Source: JAHJDO01 sp030671985 [NCBI: bacterium] (GTDB lineage: Bacteria; JAHJDO01). From it: 12,571 nt of DNA. Shown here in pieces: positions 1 through 12,526 of the stretch. Below the pieces are notes generated by a model that worked only from the letters and a program-made list of their open reading frames with translations, had not been told where the DNA came from and made no database searches. Positions within the stretch are counted from its first letter, which is position 1. Each line of letters begins with the position of its first letter. Both the position numbers and the translations under genes were made by a program. The stretch covers positions 1-12,571 of the forward strand of contig DAOVHI010000030.1 in NCBI GenBank assembly GCA_030671985.1, written 5' to 3'.

Positions 1-585
1 AACCAAATTATGCTCTTCTAAAGAACCCATTATCCAGAAAATAATTCCGTGAAGATCCTCTGTGCGGGATACAGCCATGATGAGCATAATTAGAGACGAG
101 GAGATAAAACTTATCATTACTCCCGTAAGAAGAAGCCCTTGAATTCTCAATATGCCTCTTCTCATGCTTAAGAAATAAACAATTGTGATTACAATAATCG
201 CTCCTAAAAATCCGCTTACAGGAATGGACAATATCCCTCCTATCCTATTTAATCCCAAAACAATACTTAGACATACCCCAAGAGCAGCCCCGCCTGAAAT
301 GCCAAGAGTATACGGCTCTACCAGAGGATTGCGAAACATACCCTGAAGAACTACTCCGGCAATACTCAATGCGCTTCCTACCGCAAGACCCAGAATAATT
401 CGAGGTAAGCGTATATCAAAAAGGATGCTGTACTCAGTAGTTCCCCTGCCTTCAAGGATCAAAGGTATGATTTTCTTAAAAGGGATACCTGCCGAGCCAA
501 CGCTTAATGAAAAAGCGCCTGCTCCAATAAGAATCCCACCTAAAACCAATATCCAAACAATCCAGCGAACCTGTTTTTTATCCAT
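1..585 (-). CDS. btuC: BtuC/FecCD-type ABC transporter permease (partial, C-terminus off the window)
   Basis: Inner-membrane permease of an ABC importer for cobalamin or an iron chelate. I translated this frame by hand from the ATG at 585-583. It gives 195 codons, open to the window edge, starting [17 protein letters not shown]. One membrane helix comes first, then the family hallmark LPRIILGLAVGSALSIAG followed by LQGMFRNPLVEPYTLGISGG, which is the conserved TM2-TM3 region of BtuC/FhuB/FepD permeases. More hydrophobic helices follow up to the edge. Full-length relatives have about 320-350 residues, so roughly 130-150 are missing. The start overlaps the stop of the binding-protein gene by one base (TAATG), which implies translational coupling. 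Choosing cobalamin over a siderophore rests on the upstream cobalamin riboswitch. The ATPase gene would be expected further left, outside the window. Confidence 0.9.
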   Translation of the reverse strand, partial: MDKKQVRWIVWILVLGGILIGAGAFSLSVGSAGIPFKKIIPLILEGRGTTEYSILFDIRLPRIILGLAVGSALSIAGVVLQGMFRNPLVEPYTLGISGGAALGVCLSIVLGLNRIGGILSIPVSGFLGAIIVITIVYFLSMRRGILRIQGLLLTGVMISFISSSLIMLIMAVSRTEDLHGIIFWIMGSLEEHNLV

Positions 586-4471: not shown

Positions 4472-6058
4472 TTAATGATTATTTCCCCACTTTGCGTCGT
4501 TCTGTTTTGGATAATCCATACGATAATGAACGCCCCTGCTTTCCTTCCTGATAAGGGCCGCTTTCTGAACAAGTCCTGCTATAAGAAGCATATTCTGCAA
4601 TTCCCAGTCCCTGACATCGCTAAATTCTTTTTTCATTACATATGAAGACCAAAAACTAATTTCTTTCTGAGCGGCTAAAAGCCCTGTCTCATTTCTTTCA
4701 ATACCCACATACCTTGTCATTAAACTTTTTAGAGCAGCTTTGAGATCTCCTATATCCAATTTTCTTGTACTGACATGGTCTAATACATTGCTTATATCCG
4801 GAGTTGTATCCACTTTTTTCCCGCTATCTATATCCTTGCCCGCAAACTGCCCTGCTCTATAACCAAAAACCAGCCCCTCAAGGAGAGAATTGCTCGCCAG
4901 TCTGTTAGCACCATGAGCCCCCGAAGAAGCAGTTTCTCCGCACGCATATAGATTTTGAATATTAGTTTTCCCCTTCTCATCTATCTTAATTCCTCCTATC
5001 ATATAATGAGCAGTAGGCCGGACAGGTATAAGATCTTTTTTAATATCTATGTCAAAAGAAGAGCAGACCTCCATTATATTCGGAAAACGATTCTTAATTA
5101 AACTAGGCGGTAAATGTGTAATATCTAAATAGACACGCGTATCGGATGTTTTTCTCATTTCTTTCAGAATTGATCTTGATGTCACATCACGGGGAGCAAG
5201 CTCTCCATCCTTATGATATTTAAACATGAATCTCTCGCCATGCCTATTTTTCAACACACCACCTTCGCCTCTAACCGCTTCGGAAATCAAGATGCGCGAC
5301 AGCCCTGCTACATACAGGGTGGTAGGATGAAACTGAACAAATTCCATATCTACAAGTTTAGCTCCCGCTCTATAGGCAAGCGCCATACCGCATCCTGTCG
5401 CAACGGAAGAATTTGTTGTCTCCCGATAAAGCCGGCCAATTCCGCCTGTAGCCAATATTACTTTTTGCGCGTAGATTATTCTTCGTTCATTGTTTTTCAT
5501 ATTAACAATAGTGCCAAAACAAGTTCCGTCCTTATGAAGCAAATCTATGGCAAAAGCATACTCTAAAATCTTAATATTAGTGTTTTGTTTGACTTTCGCT
5601 ATCAGAGTTCTTTCTAGTTCTATACCTGTGGCATCGCCTTTTGCATGTATAACTCTTCGCATGCTATGACCTGCTTCCCGAGTAAAAGAGAGCTCGTCCC
5701 CCTGTTTGTCAAATTCAGCTCCCCACTTAATCAATTCTCTAATACGAGCAGGTCCTTCTTCTACTATTATTTTAACCGCCTTCTCGTCGCATAATCCGCA
5801 TCCAACTTTCAAAGTATCTTTTATATGCTTTTCAGGCGCATCGTTCTTTGACAGCGCCACAGCTATTCCGCCCTGCGCTTTTTGGGTGTTGTTCTCGCTG
5901 AGTTTATTCTTCGTTATTATAGTTACCGTTCCATATTTTGCCGCTTGAATAGCGCTGGAGAGCCCGGCTACCCCGCTTCCAACAATTAAGATATCTGTTT
6001 TGCCAGATGGAAGATCTTTTGAATTAAAAGATACCAAGAATCTATTCATAAGCCGCAT
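4472..6058 (-). CDS. nadB: L-aspartate oxidase (NadB)
   Basis: FAD enzyme that oxidises L-aspartate to iminoaspartate, the first step of de novo NAD synthesis; NadA then makes quinolinate. The 528 residues show the dinucleotide-binding GSGVAGL (27-33), HSMRRVIHAKGDATG (131-145), EFVQFHPTTL with H244, SEAVRGEGG (259-267), RDVTSRS with R290, PTAHYMIGGI with H351, and GANRLASNSLLEG with R386. The set of active-site histidines and arginines and the C-terminal helical domain ending RGVHYRMDYP separate NadB from succinate dehydrogenase and fumarate reductase flavoproteins. No strong ribosome-binding site precedes the ATG at 6058. The in-frame ATG at 6049 gives the N-terminus MNRFLVSF, closer to relatives, so the start is uncertain by three residues. 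nadA and nadC are not in the window. feoA follows after 13 bases. Confidence 0.96.
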   Translation of the reverse strand: MRLMNRFLVSFNSKDLPSGKTDILIVGSGVAGLSSAIQAAKYGTVTIITKNKLSENNTQKAQGGIAVALSKNDAPEKHIKDTLKVGCGLCDEKAVKIIVEEGPARIRELIKWGAEFDKQGDELSFTREAGHSMRRVIHAKGDATGIELERTLIAKVKQNTNIKILEYAFAIDLLHKDGTCFGTIVNMKNNERRIIYAQKVILATGGIGRLYRETTNSSVATGCGMALAYRAGAKLVDMEFVQFHPTTLYVAGLSRILISEAVRGEGGVLKNRHGERFMFKYHKDGELAPRDVTSRSILKEMRKTSDTRVYLDITHLPPSLIKNRFPNIMEVCSSFDIDIKKDLIPVRPTAHYMIGGIKIDEKGKTNIQNLYACGETASSGAHGANRLASNSLLEGLVFGYRAGQFAGKDIDSGKKVDTTPDISNVLDHVSTRKLDIGDLKAALKSLMTRYVGIERNETGLLAAQKEISFWSSYVMKKEFSDVRDWELQNMLLIAGLVQKAALIRKESRGVHYRMDYPKQNDAKWGNNH

Positions 6059-6090: not shown

Positions 6091-6759
6091 TCACGCTGAT
6101 AATCTCAAACATTCATCTTTTAAATTACATGTATATGGAGAACCACAGTGTTTGCCTATTGAAACCGAAGGGCAGCTGCTTAATTTTACAACATCGGACA
6201 TCTTGCTGATCCTCTCCCTAATACCTTGCTGAGCTTCAGCAACTTCCATACTTATATCCTGAATGCAAAACAGTTCCCCCACATTAATATCGCCTTGTCT
6301 GACATATTGATTATTGATAAAGCATAAATGACATTTTGCTATCTTCAGCCCTGCCATTTCACAGCAATGTTTTTGAAAAGAAACATCGTGGATATTCTCT
6401 TCTTTAACCTTTGTTCCTGATTTGACTTCAATGATATCAAAGCTCACGTCATCATTCGGCTTGAGAACATCAATTCGCGAGTAACAATTATTAGCCATAA
6501 TCCCTGCTTCAAAAAGCGGCGCATTTTCCAACAGACCATCCCTTGTCAAATAAATATTCCGCATAAAATCATCCGTCGGAATATCAATACCTTCGGGAAA
6601 TAATTGTTTGGCAAGAATCCCAATTTCAGTTCCGGCATCCATCCTACGTTGAACCTCTTCCGACGGCGCAGGAATCTTATCCTTCGCCTTGACAAGCATC
6701 CATAATAGTTTTGAACACTGAAGCCCTGCAAGATATTTTGATTTGGTTAAAAGAGCCAT
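6091..6759 (-). CDS. Short PD-(D/E)XK nuclease with four-cysteine Fe-S-type pattern (DUF2779-like N-terminal region)
   Basis: A 222-residue protein. It begins MALLTKSKYLAGLQCSKLLW, with a cysteine at 15, then GTEIGILAKQLFPEG (43-57). The nuclease core shows D97 in SRIDVL, then IIEVKSG with E111 and K113, and Q129 in SFQKHC, the D...ExK...Q arrangement of RecB/Cas4-type nucleases. Three more cysteines, C205, C211 and C217 (HCGSPYTCNLKDEC), follow. One N-terminal plus three C-terminal cysteines is the pattern that binds a 4Fe-4S cluster in Cas4, AddB and Dna2. The sequence resembles the N-terminal part of longer proteins carrying DUF2779, but it stops right after the cysteine cluster, so the second half is missing or was never present. 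The start has AGGA 7 bases upstream. It sits 22 bases behind the transposase gene and 32 before nadB. Substrate and role are unknown; DNA repair or defence are possibilities. Confidence 0.8.
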   Translation of the reverse strand: MALLTKSKYLAGLQCSKLLWMLVKAKDKIPAPSEEVQRRMDAGTEIGILAKQLFPEGIDIPTDDFMRNIYLTRDGLLENAPLFEAGIMANNCYSRIDVLKPNDDVSFDIIEVKSGTKVKEENIHDVSFQKHCCEMAGLKIAKCHLCFINNQYVRQGDINVGELFCIQDISMEVAEAQQGIRERISKMSDVVKLSSCPSVSIGKHCGSPYTCNLKDECLRLSA

Positions 6760-6781
6760 GTTGTTTTCCTAAAATATCCTT

Positions 6782-7282
6782 CTATTCAAAGTCATCCCAC
6801 ATAAAATTATCCGTATCATACAATATTGGTTCAAAAAGCTTTTGTATTTTGGATACCGCTAACTCTCCCCATCTTTCTTCATGCTTGAGATAATTATTGT
6901 TCACATATTCAATAGCATTGAAAAGATGGTCTTCATCATCGAGAAATGAATCGTTATAACCTTTTGACCAGAGGCTTTGCTGATATCCACTCCCTTGAAC
7001 CGACGATTTAAATCGTCGGTTCACTTCATGGGCCGATGCTCCTTTTATCTGCTTTGCGATATTCTGAATATCCTTTCCCATATCAGCAATTATCAAATGA
7101 ACATGATCTGGCAAGATTGTTCCTGCGAGAAGCTTGATGCCAAGTTTTTTTACTGACTCAACAATGCACTTTGCTAGCAAACATCTTTCCTTATCAACCA
7201 AAATCACAGCCTCTTCACCCTTTTTATGACTTCTTTTACGAGAATATTTTGTCTCAAATGTCAGTAAATGAAACTTAGCCAC
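6782..7282 (-). CDS. Y1/HUH transposase of the REP-associated (RAYT, IS200-like) type
   Basis: Single-strand DNA transposase-like protein, 166 residues. It has the HUH motif LPDHVHLII with H60 and H62, and a candidate catalytic tyrosine Y126 in AIEYVNNNYLKH. The segment LWSKGYNDSFLDDEDHL (104-120) is typical of the Y1 transposase family and its REP-associated branch. Length fits. The start is a GTG at 7282, three bases past the stop of the upstream gene, with GGG about 9 bases before it. No tnpB or clear IS ends flank it, which favours a RAYT over a complete IS605 element. Residues 87-96 are encoded by a perfect 28-bp palindrome (6996-7023) that occurs again at 8277-8304. RAYT proteins act on palindromic repeats, so this copy may be its target or a remnant of insertion. 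All recognisable active-site residues are present. Confidence 0.88.
   Translation of the reverse strand: MAKFHLLTFETKYSRKRSHKKGEEAVILVDKERCLLAKCIVESVKKLGIKLLAGTILPDHVHLIIADMGKDIQNIAKQIKGASAHEVNRRFKSSVQGSGYQQSLWSKGYNDSFLDDEDHLFNAIEYVNNNYLKHEERWGELAVSKIQKLFEPILYDTDNFMWDDFE
6996..7023. repeat. 28-bp perfect palindrome, copy A, inside the transposase gene
   Basis: Each half is TGAACCGACGATTT followed by its exact reverse complement, with no loop. Identity with copy B also covers three flanking bases on the low-coordinate side (CCT), so 31 bases (6993-7023) match in direct orientation. The palindrome is read through in frame and encodes roughly VNRRFKSSVQ. A single-strand form would fold into a long hairpin, the kind of structure Y1 transposases recognise. 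Confidence 0.95.
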
Positions 7283-7285
7283 CTT

Positions 7286-8206
7286 TTAATACCCTTTTTT
7301 TATTGCCCCAGTTCTCAGAAGTTCTTCCAGGCAAGACTTTACATCAAAGACTCTCAACTGGTTAAAAGTATCTAACCCCATTGTCTTGAATACCAGCACT
7401 TGTGTCAGATGCCTGAATAGTTCTAGATATTTTTTACACTCATCCCAATCCAGATGTTGAAATGGTGATTTGGGGTTCTCAATGGGTAACTTTCCACTGT
7501 GAGACAACTGATTTCTTACATCAGAAAAAATCCTCAGACACTCCTCCGGGATCGAAGCCACACTACTTACAAGGTATTTTTTGACCAGATAGTTGATCTT
7601 GGTATTGAGAGATGTACTTGTCAAAGCATCATAAGACACACTTCTATTATTACAGTAATACAAGTATTCCCAGATGGTTACATCTTCTAGAAATCTCGGT
7701 TCTGTAAAAAAAATACTCGAGGCATTGTAGAATGCTCTTATGTGAAACCCGTTATCGTACTTTTCCTGCCACTCATTCTTAAAAATCTCCGTGATTGCGG
7801 TTTTCAAGTGAGTTTTGAGTTCTGTCGAGTTTTTTGATATTATCTCGCAATGTTTTGCCGAGCATAAAGGAAATTCAAGTCGCTTTTCGTAAAATTTCGG
7901 CACCACATTCCGCCCAATGCAAATTGAGATAACCACTAACAGGTCTTCTAGAAACTTGATGCTTCTATACATGGAATCTGTTCGACCCGTACGAAAGATC
8001 GAATCCTTTTGCCTAGCAGGAATTGAGACGCGAGCATTTAGGTGCATTCTTCTGTTGTATCTCAACATATAATAGGAGCTAGTTCTTACCCTTCTCTGCT
8101 GTTGTTTCTTTTGGATTGGATAAAAAGTGTAGCCATCGACAGTGAAGTGTTGAAAGTCCTCTGCGAAGATGAAATCCAAATTGTACAATCTCAACAATCT
8201 GCTCAT
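7286..8206 (-). CDS. Uncharacterised protein with a candidate HEPN RNase motif
   Basis: I do not recognise a named family over its 306 residues. There is no signal peptide and no membrane helix. The N-terminal 70 residues look beta-rich and basic (QKKQQQRRVR near 32-41, YNRRMHLNARV near 50-60). The rest is mainly helical with many aromatic residues. Near the C-terminus, DVRNQLSHSGKLP contains R231 to H236, which fits the Rx4H motif of HEPN domains, often written RNxxxH, and lies between predicted helices as in that fold. HEPN proteins are frequently RNase toxins or phage-defence effectors such as ApeA, but one motif is thin support. The ATG at 8206 is preceded by GAGGG at a rather long 12-base spacing. 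The gene ends three bases before the transposase start, so the two are probably co-transcribed. It could also be a non-defence protein in which the motif is accidental. Confidence 0.7.
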   Translation of the reverse strand: MSRLLRLYNLDFIFAEDFQHFTVDGYTFYPIQKKQQQRRVRTSSYYMLRYNRRMHLNARVSIPARQKDSIFRTGRTDSMYRSIKFLEDLLVVISICIGRNVVPKFYEKRLEFPLCSAKHCEIISKNSTELKTHLKTAITEIFKNEWQEKYDNGFHIRAFYNASSIFFTEPRFLEDVTIWEYLYYCNNRSVSYDALTSTSLNTKINYLVKKYLVSSVASIPEECLRIFSDVRNQLSHSGKLPIENPKSPFQHLDWDECKKYLELFRHLTQVLVFKTMGLDTFNQLRVFDVKSCLEELLRTGAIKKGY

Positions 8207-8227
8207 GTCAATTCATATCCCTCAACT

Positions 8228-8250
8228 CTTTAAGCTTGAAGCTCTTAAAG
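8228..8250. repeat. Short inverted repeat upstream of the candidate HEPN gene
   Basis: CTTTAAG (8228-8234) and CTTAAAG (8244-8250) are exact inverted copies separated by 9 bases. The pair lies just upstream of the ribosome-binding site of the gene starting at 8206. It could be an operator or a weak hairpin; no T-run follows on either strand, so it is not a convincing terminator. Confidence 0.35.
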
Positions 8251-8276
8251 GCGACCTGCAGCTGTGGCGATTGCCT

Positions 8277-8304
8277 TGAACCGACGATTTAAATCGTCGG
8301 TTCA
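8277..8304. repeat. 28-bp perfect palindrome, copy B, between pckG and the candidate HEPN gene
   Basis: Identical to the palindrome inside the transposase gene, in the same orientation as judged by the shared flanking CCT, 1281 bases away. It starts 12 bases after the PEP carboxykinase stop. No T-tract follows on the minus strand (AAGGCAATC follows), so it is not a standard terminator, although it could slow transcription or protect the 3' end of the upstream message. It marks the pckG-side edge of the accessory island. Confidence 0.95.
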
Positions 8305-8316
8305 GGGAACAGGGTG

Positions 8317-10203
8317 CTACTTGCAGAAAACCTCAGGAGCTATGTAACCTCCGTATTTTCCCTGCGCAGCTTTCAGACGTTTCTTCTGTTCTTCAAGAAT
8401 GCTGAAAAGAATATCCGGAGTATCTGAGACTTTTGTTTTGTATATCTCTGTGATTCTTTCTATTTTTTCCAGATTTTCGGGTATTCTCAATGTGAACTGA
8501 TTTATATAGTCTTCTTCTGAGTAATCGACATCAAGAACCTGTTTAAATAATTTTTTAAGGTCTTCGTATTTCGGGATAAAACCTGTTGGAGTTTTGATCG
8601 CGTCTACATCATTGTTAACCCGCAATTCCATCCATTTAATCCATACACGCTTATCCTGCATACCTGTTATATACTCACCTGTTTTACTGTCTTTAAGAAA
8701 GTAATTGGCTGCAAAAATCGCAGGCGGAGAATCCAGAGAATCTGCGAATTTAAGATAATTGCTAATATATTTACCTAGCGAAACGGAAACAAAATCTATA
8801 TTAGACATAGGGCAAAATTGTCTGACGCCTTCCTGCCCAAGAGTTGCGGATGTAGTCTCTGATTCCAAAGAAGCTCCCATTGTTATTACTCCGTGCGACC
8901 AATCAAAAGACTGCTGCAGGGGAGACCATGTACTTGAATCCCTTCCGCCGTAGATTATTCCTTTTGTTTCTGCTCCCTGGACATCATCCAGTTTAGGATC
9001 CAGATTCTTAAGAGAATGAAGTTTGACTGTATATCTTGCATTTTTATGAGAATGTGTTATCTCTGTTCCTTTTGAATCTTTTTTCCCCTTTACCCATTGT
9101 CCTGAATGGTTGATCCCGCTTTCAGGTATTTCTCTTTTGTCTCCAAGCCAAAAAGGAATTTTATCTTCCGTTACAAGAATATTAGAGAATATTACTTCGT
9201 TGGGAGATGTTAAAACATCCCATATTAAAGGATCATCCTTTGCGTTAACATTCTGAATAATTCCAAATATTCCGCTCTCAACATTTACTGCATAAACCTT
9301 GCCATCCCGATGCCTTAAATACGCTATATCATCCCCTACAATGCTTTCTCCTCTCATCATAGCAGTTGACGTTTTTCCGCATGCGCTTGGATAAGCTCCG
9401 GTGAAATAGGTAACTCTTCCATCCGGGCCATGCACTCCCATAACCAGCATGTGTTCAGCAAGCCAGTCTTCTCCCGATGCCTTGTTGATGGCAAGCCTAA
9501 GAGACAGCTTTTTAAGCCCGACTGTGTTACCAGCGTATTGAGTGTTTGTGCTGTATACAATATTCTCCTCAAGATCCATATATATTCTGCGTTTGTCTAT
9601 ATCTTTGCTTACCATATTGCTCAGAGCACCGGCGCTGTGCATAATCCTAAAGAAACTCTCGGAATTACCAATTCGTTCAAACTGCTTGTATCCTCTCCTA
9701 TAGAGAATATGTTCCGAATGCGCAACATAACTGGAATCGGTTATCTGAACACACGGTATGGAAAATTCAGAATTAGTCGGCCCAAGACAGAAAAACAAAA
9801 CCAGCATCTCCTTTCCAGCCATACTATCCTTTAAATATTCATGGACTTCTGCCAGACCTGCTTTTTTGTCTATTGTATTAAAACTGGCTCCGAGCTTTAT
9901 TCCCTCAGAAAGAAGGTATTTGGTTTGCGCTTTATCTCGAGCTTGATCATTGTAACCGTCATAATGAACTGTATGTCCCTGAACAGCGAGCTTTCCTTCC
10001 TCCCCAGTTTCCAACGCCTTATTTCTTATATACTGAGCATCCTCATCAGAATCGTTGCCAATAAAAACCGAATCAGGGTTACAAAGCTCTGCATATTTTC
10101 CGACAAAATCATGCAGCTTTGCATTATCCAAAGCCATCAATTTCTTATAACTTGCTTCCGTACATTTTTTCTTAAGCAACTCAGCGTATTTCTCTTCCAT
10201 CAT
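8317..10203 (-). CDS. pckG: GTP-dependent phosphoenolpyruvate carboxykinase
   Basis: Cytosolic enzyme interconverting oxaloacetate and PEP with GTP/GDP, either for gluconeogenesis or for anaplerotic carbon fixation. The 628 residues match the GTP family rather than the ATP family: YAGNTVGLKKLSLRLAI (223-239), WLAEHMLVMGV, the P-loop TGAYPSACGKTS (268-279) with the family's active-site cysteine C275 and K277, kinase-2 GDDIA (290-294), GGRDSSTWSPLQQS (419-432), and HGVITMGASLESETTSA. The C-terminal lid and KRVWIKWMELRV also fit. Length is close to the usual 600-630. Two adjacent ATGs occur at 10203 and 10200; GGGG lies 3 and 6 bases upstream of them, so the second has the better spacing. The gene begins 13 bases after the lon stop, so it may be read through from lon. 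No separate promoter is evident. Confidence 0.95.
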   Translation of the reverse strand: MMEEKYAELLKKKCTEASYKKLMALDNAKLHDFVGKYAELCNPDSVFIGNDSDEDAQYIRNKALETGEEGKLAVQGHTVHYDGYNDQARDKAQTKYLLSEGIKLGASFNTIDKKAGLAEVHEYLKDSMAGKEMLVLFFCLGPTNSEFSIPCVQITDSSYVAHSEHILYRRGYKQFERIGNSESFFRIMHSAGALSNMVSKDIDKRRIYMDLEENIVYSTNTQYAGNTVGLKKLSLRLAINKASGEDWLAEHMLVMGVHGPDGRVTYFTGAYPSACGKTSTAMMRGESIVGDDIAYLRHRDGKVYAVNVESGIFGIIQNVNAKDDPLIWDVLTSPNEVIFSNILVTEDKIPFWLGDKREIPESGINHSGQWVKGKKDSKGTEITHSHKNARYTVKLHSLKNLDPKLDDVQGAETKGIIYGGRDSSTWSPLQQSFDWSHGVITMGASLESETTSATLGQEGVRQFCPMSNIDFVSVSLGKYISNYLKFADSLDSPPAIFAANYFLKDSKTGEYITGMQDKRVWIKWMELRVNNDVDAIKTPTGFIPKYEDLKKLFKQVLDVDYSEEDYINQFTLRIPENLEKIERITEIYKTKVSDTPDILFSILEEQKKRLKAAQGKYGGYIAPEVFCK

Positions 10204-10216
10204 GATCCCCTTTCTT

Positions 10217-12526
10217 TTATTTTAAAATACCCGCTTTTTTAAATACCTGATCAGTATTTTTTACAAAAACAAATTGCATCTTTTTTCTTACATTCAAAGG
10301 AATCTCATCAAGATCCTTTTTGTTTTCCTGCGGCAGAATAACTGTCTTTATATTGCTTCTATGGGCTGCCAGAACTTTGGATTTCACACCTCCTACCGGC
10401 AAGACGTTTCCTCTGAGCGTTATTTCTCCCGTCATCGCAATATCCTTCTTGATAGATTTATTAGTAAGCGCAGAAGCCAGAGAAACTGCCATTGCAACGC
10501 CGGCAGAAGGACCGTCTTTTGGGATACCTCCTTCGGGCACATGAATATGTATATCGATATCCTTATAAAAATCCTCCGATAAATGAAGTTCTTTTGCTTT
10601 AGAACGAACAAAGCTGAGCGCTGCCTGACCGGATTCCTTCATAACATCTCCCAACTGACCTGTTAGAGTAAGCTCTCCCTTTCCTTCCATTATAGCAACC
10701 TCTATTGACAATATCTCACCTCCAACCTCTGTCCATGCAAGACCGGTAACAACTCCAACTTCAGCTTTTTCCTCTCCCTTATTATATCTAAATTTTTTAT
10801 TCCCCAAAAAATCATAAAGATTGCCTGGAAGCACTTTAATCTTTTTCTTTCTCTTTTTTTCAACAATCAGCTTAGCTGCTTTTCTGCATATAGACGCAAT
10901 CTCTCTTTCGAGATTTCTCACCCCCGCTTCGCGCGTATAATATCTTACTATACTGAAAAGGGTTTTATCCGAAATTTCAAGCAAGTCACTATTCAACCCA
11001 TTGAGCTTTAGCTGTTTTGTTATTAAAAATTTGTTTGCTATTTTCACCTTCTCCATTTCTGTATAACCTGAAAAATCTATTACTTCAAAACGGTCAAGTA
11101 ACGTCAGAGGAATATTATGAATGACATTTGCCGTTGCTATGAACATTACATTCGAAAGATCAAAATCTACTTCAAGATAGTGATCATTGAATTCTTGATT
11201 CTGTTCGGGATCAAGCACTTCAAGAAGCGCAGAGGACGGATCTCCTCTAAAATCAACACTCATTTTATCAACCTCATCAAGCAGAAATACGGGATTTCTT
11301 TTACCCGCCTTTCTAATGGATTGAATTACCTTTCCTGGCAAAGCACCTATATATGTCCGCCGATGACCTCTAATCGTTGCTTCATCTCTTACTCCGCCAA
11401 GAGAAACCCTTATAAATTTCCTGCCTAAAGCACGAGCGATTGATCTCGCTAATGACGTTTTTCCTACACCTGGAGGCCCCACAAAACAAAGTATCGGACC
11501 TTTAAGCTTTTTTACTAACTTTCTTACTGCCAGGAATTCCAGTATCCTTTCCTTGGCCTTTTCAAGTCCATAATGATCCTGATCAAGAATTTTACCGCTC
11601 TTCTTTATATTTAATTTATCCGGTGTTTCTTTACTCCACGGAACACCGATCAGCCAGTCCAGATAATTGCGAACCACAGTCGCCTCAGGAGACATTGAAT
11701 GCATCTTTGCCAGCTTTTCCAGCTCCTTATTCGCTTTCTCTTCAGCCTCTTTTGTCATCTTAGCTTCTTTTATTTTTGCCTTAAGCTCACTAATCTCGTC
11801 TCCATCTTTTGAGCCTTTTCCCAGCTCCTTTTCTATTGCCTTCATCTGCTCATGCAGATAAAACCGCTTTTGCGTTTTACCAATCTGTTCCGTAACCCGC
11901 CCTTGAATCTTCTTCTCAACACCAAGAATCTCTATCTCTCCTGCAAGTATTTCTATCATTTTCTTTAATCTATCTTCATGATGAAAGGATTCTAGAATTT
12001 GTTGTTTTATTTCCGTTTTAACTTTAATATGAGAAGCAATTACATCCACTAATTTGCCGGGTTGATTAAAACTATTAATTGAGTTTAGGAATTCTCCGGG
12101 TATTTTAGGACTCAGTTCTCCGTACTTCTGAAATATTTTTTTAACCGTTCTCATTAAAGCTTCTATTTCAGGTGTCTTTTTAGAGGATTCTTTTACTCTT
12201 TCTGCTTTTACTTCAAATATTCCTCTTGTATTGACATATTTTATTATCCTTGCTCTATCCATCCCTTCTATCAATATTTTAATGGATCCATCCTGATTTT
12301 TCGCTACCTGTAGAATTTCTGCGACTGTTCCGACCTCATACATATCTTCAGGGATTGGATCTTCTGTAAGCGCGTTCTTCTGCGCCACTAACAAGACCTT
12401 CTTTGATCCTGCCATAGCTTTTTCTACAGCAAGAATAGACCTGCTTCTGGCAATCCATAACGGAACTATCATGTATGGAAGCACAACAATATCTCTGATG
12501 GGGATAAGGGGAAATCTATCAGGCAA
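10217..12526 (-). CDS. lon: ATP-dependent Lon protease
   Basis: Cytosolic AAA+ serine protease that degrades misfolded and regulatory proteins. All domains are present in 769 residues. The N-terminal LON substrate domain (about 5-200, starting FPLIPIRDIVVLPYM) is followed by a coiled coil (about 215-275). The AAA+ module has Walker A GPPGVGKT (350-357), Walker B VFLLDEVD (413-420) and the GGVRDEATIRGHRRTYIGA segment. The proteolytic domain carries S674 in PKDGPSAGV and K717 in GGVKSKVLAAHR as the Ser-Lys dyad. Length is close to E. coli Lon (784). The start codon is TTG at 12526. No ATG or GTG lies between it and the in-frame stop at 12547-12545, the family begins at this point, and GGAAAG lies about 10 bases upstream. 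Its promoter would lie at or beyond the right edge. Confidence 0.97.
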   Translation of the reverse strand: MPDRFPLIPIRDIVVLPYMIVPLWIARSRSILAVEKAMAGSKKVLLVAQKNALTEDPIPEDMYEVGTVAEILQVAKNQDGSIKILIEGMDRARIIKYVNTRGIFEVKAERVKESSKKTPEIEALMRTVKKIFQKYGELSPKIPGEFLNSINSFNQPGKLVDVIASHIKVKTEIKQQILESFHHEDRLKKMIEILAGEIEILGVEKKIQGRVTEQIGKTQKRFYLHEQMKAIEKELGKGSKDGDEISELKAKIKEAKMTKEAEEKANKELEKLAKMHSMSPEATVVRNYLDWLIGVPWSKETPDKLNIKKSGKILDQDHYGLEKAKERILEFLAVRKLVKKLKGPILCFVGPPGVGKTSLARSIARALGRKFIRVSLGGVRDEATIRGHRRTYIGALPGKVIQSIRKAGKRNPVFLLDEVDKMSVDFRGDPSSALLEVLDPEQNQEFNDHYLEVDFDLSNVMFIATANVIHNIPLTLLDRFEVIDFSGYTEMEKVKIANKFLITKQLKLNGLNSDLLEISDKTLFSIVRYYTREAGVRNLEREIASICRKAAKLIVEKKRKKKIKVLPGNLYDFLGNKKFRYNKGEEKAEVGVVTGLAWTEVGGEILSIEVAIMEGKGELTLTGQLGDVMKESGQAALSFVRSKAKELHLSEDFYKDIDIHIHVPEGGIPKDGPSAGVAMAVSLASALTNKSIKKDIAMTGEITLRGNVLPVGGVKSKVLAAHRSNIKTVILPQENKKDLDEIPLNVRKKMQFVFVKNTDQVFKKAGILK

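What the first reader, a model, noticed from the sequence alone, without database searches (positions are those of the whole stretch)
6993..8304. Identical 31-bp palindromic repeat inside a RAYT gene and at the island edge
A perfect 28-bp palindrome plus three matching flanking bases occurs twice in direct orientation 1281 bp apart. One copy (6996-7023) lies in the coding frame of the Y1/HUH transposase and encodes about residues 87-96; the other (8277-8304) lies right after pckG. RAYT enzymes act on palindromic REP sequences, so the transposase may carry its own target within its gene, or the palindrome may be a small mobile element inserted in frame, like the Rickettsia palindromic elements. 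Recombination between the copies would remove the candidate HEPN gene and half the transposase.
Basis: partly seen in the sequence, partly recalled or inferred. Interest (0 to 1): 0.65.

Follow-up and report, generated by a model that had tools for sequence, protein, structure and literature searches.

The report
Transposase gene carrying its own palindrome
A small transposase gene has, inside its protein-coding sequence, a perfect DNA palindrome that also occurs elsewhere in the genome; related transposases, most of them embedded in restriction-enzyme genes, carry palindromes of their own, so the gene probably carries a copy of a DNA hairpin that its enzyme recognises.

Summary
The repeat is real and far beyond chance. 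It belongs to a low-copy palindrome family: 5 copies in the window's genome, 1-5 in the 5 held genomes of its genus, 1-7 in 47 genomes reached through palindrome hits. The gene is a Y1/HUH transposase. With 12 relatives it forms a clade; at least 9 of the 13 lie in frame inside Eco57I-type methylase genes. All 13 sampled carry an in-frame hairpin of 9 bp or more, against 2 of 42 other Y1 genes. In window, L039 and L182 it covers the same codons (HUH+29 to +36), though L182's sequence differs. One free-standing relative has a 26-bp palindrome upstream, downstream and inside its gene, with no other copy in 320,875 sampled bases. Best reading: a REP-like hairpin carried in frame in a permissive loop. 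It is not a Rickettsia-type added block, since the window gene shows no net insertion. In-frame REPs in tnpAREP genes are published for another subclass (Quentin 2018), so this is a new variant of a known kind. I found no report of the methylase-embedded lineage (listings only). Recognition by the enzyme is untested.

The parts
6782..7282 (-). Y1/HUH (IS200-like) transposase gene, 166 aa, GTG start
   Evidence: Pfam Y1_Tnp 2.5e-13; fold match to ISDra2, IS608 and REP-associated TnpA structures
7097..7105 (-). HUH motif (residues 60-62, HVH)
   Evidence: H60 and H62 invariant in alignment A2
6905..6907 (-). Tyr126, likely catalytic tyrosine (EYVNNN)
   Evidence: Invariant in A2; catalytic role inferred from the family, not tested
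6956..7009 (-). Loop between helix alphaC (residues 72-91) and the next strand (110-114), residues 92-109
   Evidence: AlphaFold2 model from a 6-sequence alignment, pLDDT below 50 at residues 93-100
6996..7023 (.). 28-bp perfect palindrome inside the transposase gene, codons 87-96
6972..6995 (-). Tail next to the in-gene palindrome, shared with intergenic copies on C101 and in G003
   Evidence: Local alignment; 0 of 5000 (G003) and 2 of 5000 (C101) shuffles reach the score
8277..8304 (.). Second copy of the 28-bp palindrome, between pckG and the 306-aa gene
7286..8206 (-).
   Evidence: No Pfam, NCBIfam or PADLOC match
6784..8317 (.). Window-specific segment (both palindromes, 306-aa gene, Y1 gene) between pckG and the Cas4-like/DUF2779 gene
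   Evidence: DNA similarity to G001 and G004 ends at 6772-6783 and resumes at 8318

Best explanation
The palindrome is a REP-like (IS-end-like) hairpin of Y1/HUH single-strand transposases, including the lineage to which the window's gene belongs. The enzyme most likely recognises this hairpin in single-stranded DNA, as ISDra2, IS608 and TnpAREP enzymes do. Copies stand beside some Y1 genes and at a few other sites. One copy is kept in frame inside the gene itself, from the last turn of helix alphaC into the flexible loop before the conserved LWxKxY strand, where the changed residues are tolerated. A likely consequence is that the gene always travels with a copy of its own substrate, and that cutting at that copy would inactivate the gene. 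Shown: the repeat, its distribution, its codon position, in-frame hairpins in every clade member sampled, the low-confidence loop. Inferred: recognition, cutting, mobility and any selective benefit.
For: 13 of 13 clade members have an in-frame stem of 9 bp or more within HUH-65 to HUH+95, against 2 of 42 other Y1 genes. Synonymous shuffles reach the observed stem in 0 of 60 for 10 genes, 1 of 60 for two and 2 of 60 for one. Eight of 13 longest hairpins lie at HUH+28 to +62, with 7 different sequences; window, L039 and L182 share HUH+29..36. In G087 the 26-bp palindrome lies 38 bp before, 24 bp after and inside the Y1 gene, with no other copy within 4 mismatches in 320,875 bases, about 9% of that genome. 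For the window-type palindrome, 9 of 11 Y1 matches in all 113 tiles lie within 500 bp of a copy (1 of 20,000 random placements; two matches are pieces in one locus, L135). Three of 4 copies in G006 lie within 4 kb of its Y1. Clade support 0.75; window+L039+L183 0.986. Structure.
Against: No binding or cutting data. Four of 5 genus genomes hold 1-2 palindromes but no relative of this Y1 at E 0.001. 103 of 113 palindrome tiles show no Y1. Apart from L039, the Y1 genes beside window-type palindromes that were in the tree (L080, L082, L085, L116) lie outside the clade, and G043 and G049 hold window-type palindromes while their clade Y1 carries a different one, so this palindrome is not tied to one enzyme lineage. 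The window gene has no palindrome on its far side. Copy number is 1-7. The 9-bp and 500-bp cut-offs were set after seeing data; L205-L207 are near-identical; L153 and L169 were picked partly for their long open frames. In G454, G043 and G474 the in-gene palindrome was seen only in that gene in the parts sampled.
Confidence: 0.65

Rival explanations
1. The palindrome is an independent selfish or regulatory repeat that merely landed in a permissive loop of this gene, as REPs and Rickettsia palindromic elements do in many proteins; the Y1 enzyme has nothing to do with it.
For: 103 of 113 tiles with the palindrome show no Y1, and genus members lacking this Y1 have it. Intragenic REPs in unrelated genes are known (PMC3733652). 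In L182 in-frame palindromes also follow the Y1 domain, and by protein sequence similar repeats sit upstream in the methylase part.
Against: 13 of 13 clade genes carry hairpins against 2 of 42 other Y1 genes; in the G087 sample the palindrome is only at and in the Y1 gene; window-type copies lie close to Y1 genes more often than expected. No net insertion in the window gene.
Confidence: 0.22
2. The hairpin acts in the RNA or as a protein-binding site: it controls expression of the transposase and affects transcripts after pckG.
For: The copies fold strongly; one lies 12 nt after the pckG stop, and the C103 copy lies 9 nt from the 5' end of a tRNA-Gly gene.
Against: No T-run follows the copies in the window; the in-gene copy is mid-frame; no Rfam family reaches its gathering score in the window. 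Hairpins kept at one site with changing sequence would fit an RNA role too, so this is not excluded.
Confidence: 0.1
3. The in-gene copy is old coding sequence and at least some intergenic copies were copied out of such a gene (compatible with the main explanation).
For: Copies on C101 and in G003 share a further tail of about 24 nt with the window gene (2 and 0 of 5000 shuffles), and in the gene this tail encodes the GxGxQ..LW segment also seen in L039 and, as GGGKQ..IW, in L182.
Against: A tail pattern from these copies is found beside only 1 of 121 copies in 113 tiles, the G003 one; the copy after pckG shares only its first few bases. The tail could also be part of the repeat.
Confidence: 0.25
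4. Chance codon use produced a palindrome in the gene.
For: None beyond the fact that NRRFKSSV can be encoded this way.
Against: 0 of 60 synonymous shuffles reach its 14-bp stem; an identical 31-mer lies elsewhere.
Confidence: 0.01

Closest known systems
TnpAREP subclass 2.4 with in-frame REPs inside its own gene (Quentin et al. 2018, PMC6006769; outline and passages seen)
   Same: Y1/HUH genes with REP sequences inside the coding sequence, frame kept, generally between HUH and Tyr motifs, in a peripheral region
   Different: Paper: motifs NH[IFV]H / WQ / YIxNNP, GT[AG]G-footed REPs, variable insertion between beta3 and alphaC. Here: DHVH, LWSK, YVNNN; site at the alphaC end and following loop; no GTAG foot; lineage mostly inside methylase genes. 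L021, another Y1 of this genome, resembles a true 2.4 case (GTAG...CTAC at HUH+16)
IS200/IS605 TnpA (ISDra2, IS608)
   Same: Fold; hairpin recognition in single-stranded DNA is known for that family (recalled; PDB titles)
   Different: No element with two defined ends was found at the window; the hairpin lies inside the gene; NCBIfam IS200 model below cut-off
Subclass 1.2 TnpAY1 (Quentin 2018; motifs DH[IV]H / WQ / YIKNQKEHH)
   Same: By motif L082 and L085 fit it, and the window-type palindrome lies 53 and 462 bp from them
   Different: The paper's table lists no REP for this subclass; the window's gene has other motifs
REPs, BIMEs and REPINs with RAYTs
   Same: Short palindromes in intergenic sites, some beside Y1 genes
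   Different: 1-7 copies per genome; same core in several phyla
Rickettsia palindromic elements
   Same: Palindromes read in frame inside protein genes
   Different: The window gene shows no net insertion; here one gene lineage is affected in every member sampled

Membership tests
Y1/HUH transposase (Pfam PF01797) | Profile match over the curated cut-off, HUH motif and downstream Tyr | tested here: met
   50.6 bits vs 23; H60, H62, Y126 invariant; fold
REP-associated tyrosine transposase as NCBIfam NF047646 | Score over the curated cut-off | tested here: not met
   57.4 vs 80 bits
IS200/IS605 transposase as NCBIfam NF033573 | Score over the curated cut-off | tested here: not met
   41.1 vs 55 bits
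TnpAREP subclass 2.4 (Quentin 2018) | NH[IFV]H, WQ and YIxNNP motifs | tested here: not met
   Window has DHVH, LWSK, YVNNN; motifs of the subclass
TnpAREP subclass 2.4 (Quentin 2018) | REP-like palindrome inside the gene without breaking the frame | tested here: met
REP sequence | GT[AG]G foot at the hairpin base | tested here: not met
   Window palindrome is TGAACCGACG...CGTCGGTTCA
REP sequence | High copy number | tested here: not met
   5 copies in G000; 1-7 in 47 genomes
REP sequence | Bound and cut by the linked Y1 enzyme | not testable with these tools
   Needs purified protein
Rickettsia palindromic element | Extra block absent from relatives of the same protein | tested here: not met
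   HUH-to-W distance 45 in window, L039 and L182; 42 in L153 and L205-L207

The most novel reading that the evidence does not exclude
A lineage of HUH transposases lives mainly as an in-frame domain inside type IIG-like restriction-modification genes and encodes its own hairpin substrate within its coding sequence: the site is kept while the hairpin sequence turns over with the enzyme's specificity, so gene and target are inherited as one unit and cutting it shuts the gene off.
Probability: 0.3. Interest if true: 0.8.

Novelty: new variant of a known kind. Interest (0 to 1): 0.6.

Why it matters
How REP families and their transposases stay matched is, to my knowledge, an open question. A gene that carries a hairpin in frame, with different hairpins at the same codons in relatives, offers natural enzyme-substrate pairs that can be tested directly. 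The embedding of a Y1 domain inside methylase genes suggests a mobile domain that spreads in frame without splicing.

Tried and rejected
RPE-like added block in the window gene: rejected, no net insertion against L039 and L182. Chance: rejected. Rfam element: none at gathering threshold. Close relatives by protein in genome contigs, viral contigs, plasmids and phages: none confirmed. A clean empty site between pckG and the next gene: not obtained, since G001 and G004 carry other sequence there. Codon identity of the palindrome between window and L039 is 8 of 8, against 35 of 69 elsewhere (P = 0.007), but a 20-nt identical run also exists outside it, so this alone is modest. In G371, 106,553 sampled bases, not including the gene's own contig, held no copy of its palindromes. 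In the G087 sample one palindrome with similar arms and another centre was also seen (L320). The second structure job, VIA-align, the covariance-model tools and three paper searches were not used.

Controls and dropped rows: the 42 control genes came from 69 named loci; 6 were left out as clade loci or their duplicates, 21 gave no ORF through my motif filter or were repeats. One search repeats proximity, pairing and arm length on all 113; with 80 tiles the proximity result was 5 of 7 (P = 0.02), with 113 it is 9 of 11 (P = 0.00005). In one search I gave 50 of the 114 palindrome loci held; 2 were not held and 47 genomes were searched. One of these, G048, appears by contig to be the genus member G002.

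Full report
Observation. Two identical 31-nt copies lie at 6993-7023 and 8274-8304; chance expectation is nil. The first covers codons 87-96 of the minus-strand Y1 gene 6782-7282. The gene passes Pfam's Y1_Tnp cut-off but not those of two NCBIfam families. Its model (mean pLDDT 71.7) resembles ISDra2 and IS608 TnpA and the REP-bound transposase 4er8.

Distribution. The window's genome (1.25 Mb MAG, 92% complete) has 5 copies of AACCNACGATTTAAATCGTNGGTT and none of the reversed control. The 5 held genomes of the genus, which are also all that the phylum search covered, have 1-5 copies. Only the window's genome has a relative of this Y1 at E 0.001. Viral contigs gave 1. Of 53 genomes counted, the 47 reached through palindrome loci have 1-7 copies; 6 hosts of other clade members have 0. 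The variable base covaries: 102 of 120 distinct copies keep a Watson-Crick pair, 14 more a G-T or its complement, 4 neither.

The same palindrome in a second transposase. In an Ignavibacteriales MAG (L039) a Y1 domain 52% identical to the window's has the same 24 bp at the same codons. That contig carries two more copies, its genome four in all. This Y1 lies in frame inside an 851-aa open frame of an Eco57I-type methylase.

A clade with in-frame hairpins. Profile searches of 47, 391 and 395 genomes gave 11 further relatives that I took into the clade: L153, L169, L182, L183, L184, L188, L190, L205-L208. With window and L039 they form one group in a tree of 46 sequences (support 0.75; window+L039+L183 0.986). 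Nine of 13 continue in frame into a GGFD...GNPPY methylase motif; a tenth (L169) has methylase sequence upstream and ends with its contig. In the six embedded frames given to Pfam (L039, L182, L183, L190, L205, L208), Eco57I is matched in two stretches, the better one at or just after the Y1_Tnp match; the place of the other stretch is not printed. All 13 have an in-frame hairpin with a stem of 9 bp or more in the Y1 region, against 2 of 42 other Y1 genes (Fisher 7e-11). Those two, L020 and L021, both come from the window's own genome; L021's GTAG...CTAC hairpin is of the published subclass 2.4 kind. Eight hairpins start between HUH+28 and HUH+55; L153 and L205-L207 have their longest after the tyrosine (HUH+77 to +90), L184 before the HUH motif. 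In window, L039 and L182 the hairpin covers HUH+29..36, encoding NRRFKSSV, NRRFKSSV and CRELKLSV; L182's is a different sequence. The model puts this at the end of helix alphaC and in a loop with pLDDT below 50 at 93-100.

The palindrome as part of a transposase unit. In G087 a free-standing 179-aa relative (L247:12060-12599) has the identical 26-bp palindrome at 11996, 12375 (inside) and 12624, and no other copy within 4 mismatches in 320,875 bases. Window-type palindromes lie on both sides of the Y1 domain in L116 and about 50 bp upstream in L080 and L082. In all 113 tiles, 11 Y1 matches in 10 tiles were found, 9 within 500 bp of a palindrome (1 of 20,000 random placements). But 103 tiles show no Y1, so most copies stand alone, and L080, L082, L085 and L116 fall outside the window's clade. 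G043 and G049 carry both window-type palindromes and a clade Y1 with another palindrome. The window-type palindrome is therefore not private to one enzyme lineage.

Local context. G001 and G004 keep lon, pckG and the Cas4-like/DUF2779 gene but lack the 6784-8317 segment with the Y1 and 306-aa genes at that place; G002's contig shows only lon and pckG. Two intergenic copies (C101 and G003:C163) share a tail with the in-gene copy (2 and 0 of 5000 shuffles). Because that tail encodes residues also found in L039 and L182, I lean to a flow from gene to intergenic site, with modest confidence; the tail pattern is beside only 1 of 121 copies in the 113 tiles.

Prior work. Quentin et al. 2018 (PMC6006769: outline and passages seen) report REPs inserted in frame in tnpAREP genes of subclass 2.4 and call this unique to it. 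The 2013 BMC Genomics paper on GTAG and CGTC palindromes (PMC3733652: passages and section 15 read) reports intragenic REPs in many genes. Searches for Y1 transposases in methylase or type IIG genes gave no title or abstract that reports it (listings only, nothing read, open-licence papers only). Motifs and site differ from subclass 2.4, so I file this as a new variant, not a member.

Verdict. Observation confirmed; the 'own target' reading is the best one; the Rickettsia-type insertion reading fails for this gene. Activity is untested.

Noticed in passing
L039:5099-7651, L153, L182, L183, L190, L205-L208: Y1 transposase domains embedded in frame inside Eco57I/type IIG-like methylase open frames, in these 9 just before the GGFD...GNPPY motif; no report in the listings.
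   Followed up: partly
L038-L150 (113 palindrome tiles): Many copies are extended by further perfectly paired arms, often locus-specific (up to 82 bp in all): 41 of 120 distinct copies extend 5 or more pairs beyond the 20-bp core, against a mean of 2.3 of 116 when flanks are swapped. Cause unknown; insertion into the tip of existing hairpins is one idea.
   Followed up: partly
L021 (G000:C48, near 4761-4985): Another Y1 gene of the same genome carries a GTAG...CTAC palindrome in frame at HUH+16, matching the published subclass 2.4 pattern.
   Followed up: partly
L183 (G368:C8): 18 in-frame 20-nt hairpins of four sequences (CTACACC.., CCACATC..) stacked in the loop and tail of one embedded Y1 domain.
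   Followed up: no
L082, L085: Window-type palindrome near genes whose motifs fit Quentin's subclass 1.2, for which the paper's table lists no REP.
   Followed up: no
window 6091-6759: The Cas4-like/DUF2779 gene is 222 aa here but 485 aa in G004; it appears to have lost its C-terminal part.
   Followed up: no
window 7286-8206: 306-aa gene without a family match; contains RNQLSH, which recalls a HEPN Rx4-6H motif (recalled, not tested).
   Followed up: no
L011, L027: Palindrome copies next to CGTCATTGCGAACG-like sequence, reminiscent of CGTC-tagged REPs.
   Followed up: no
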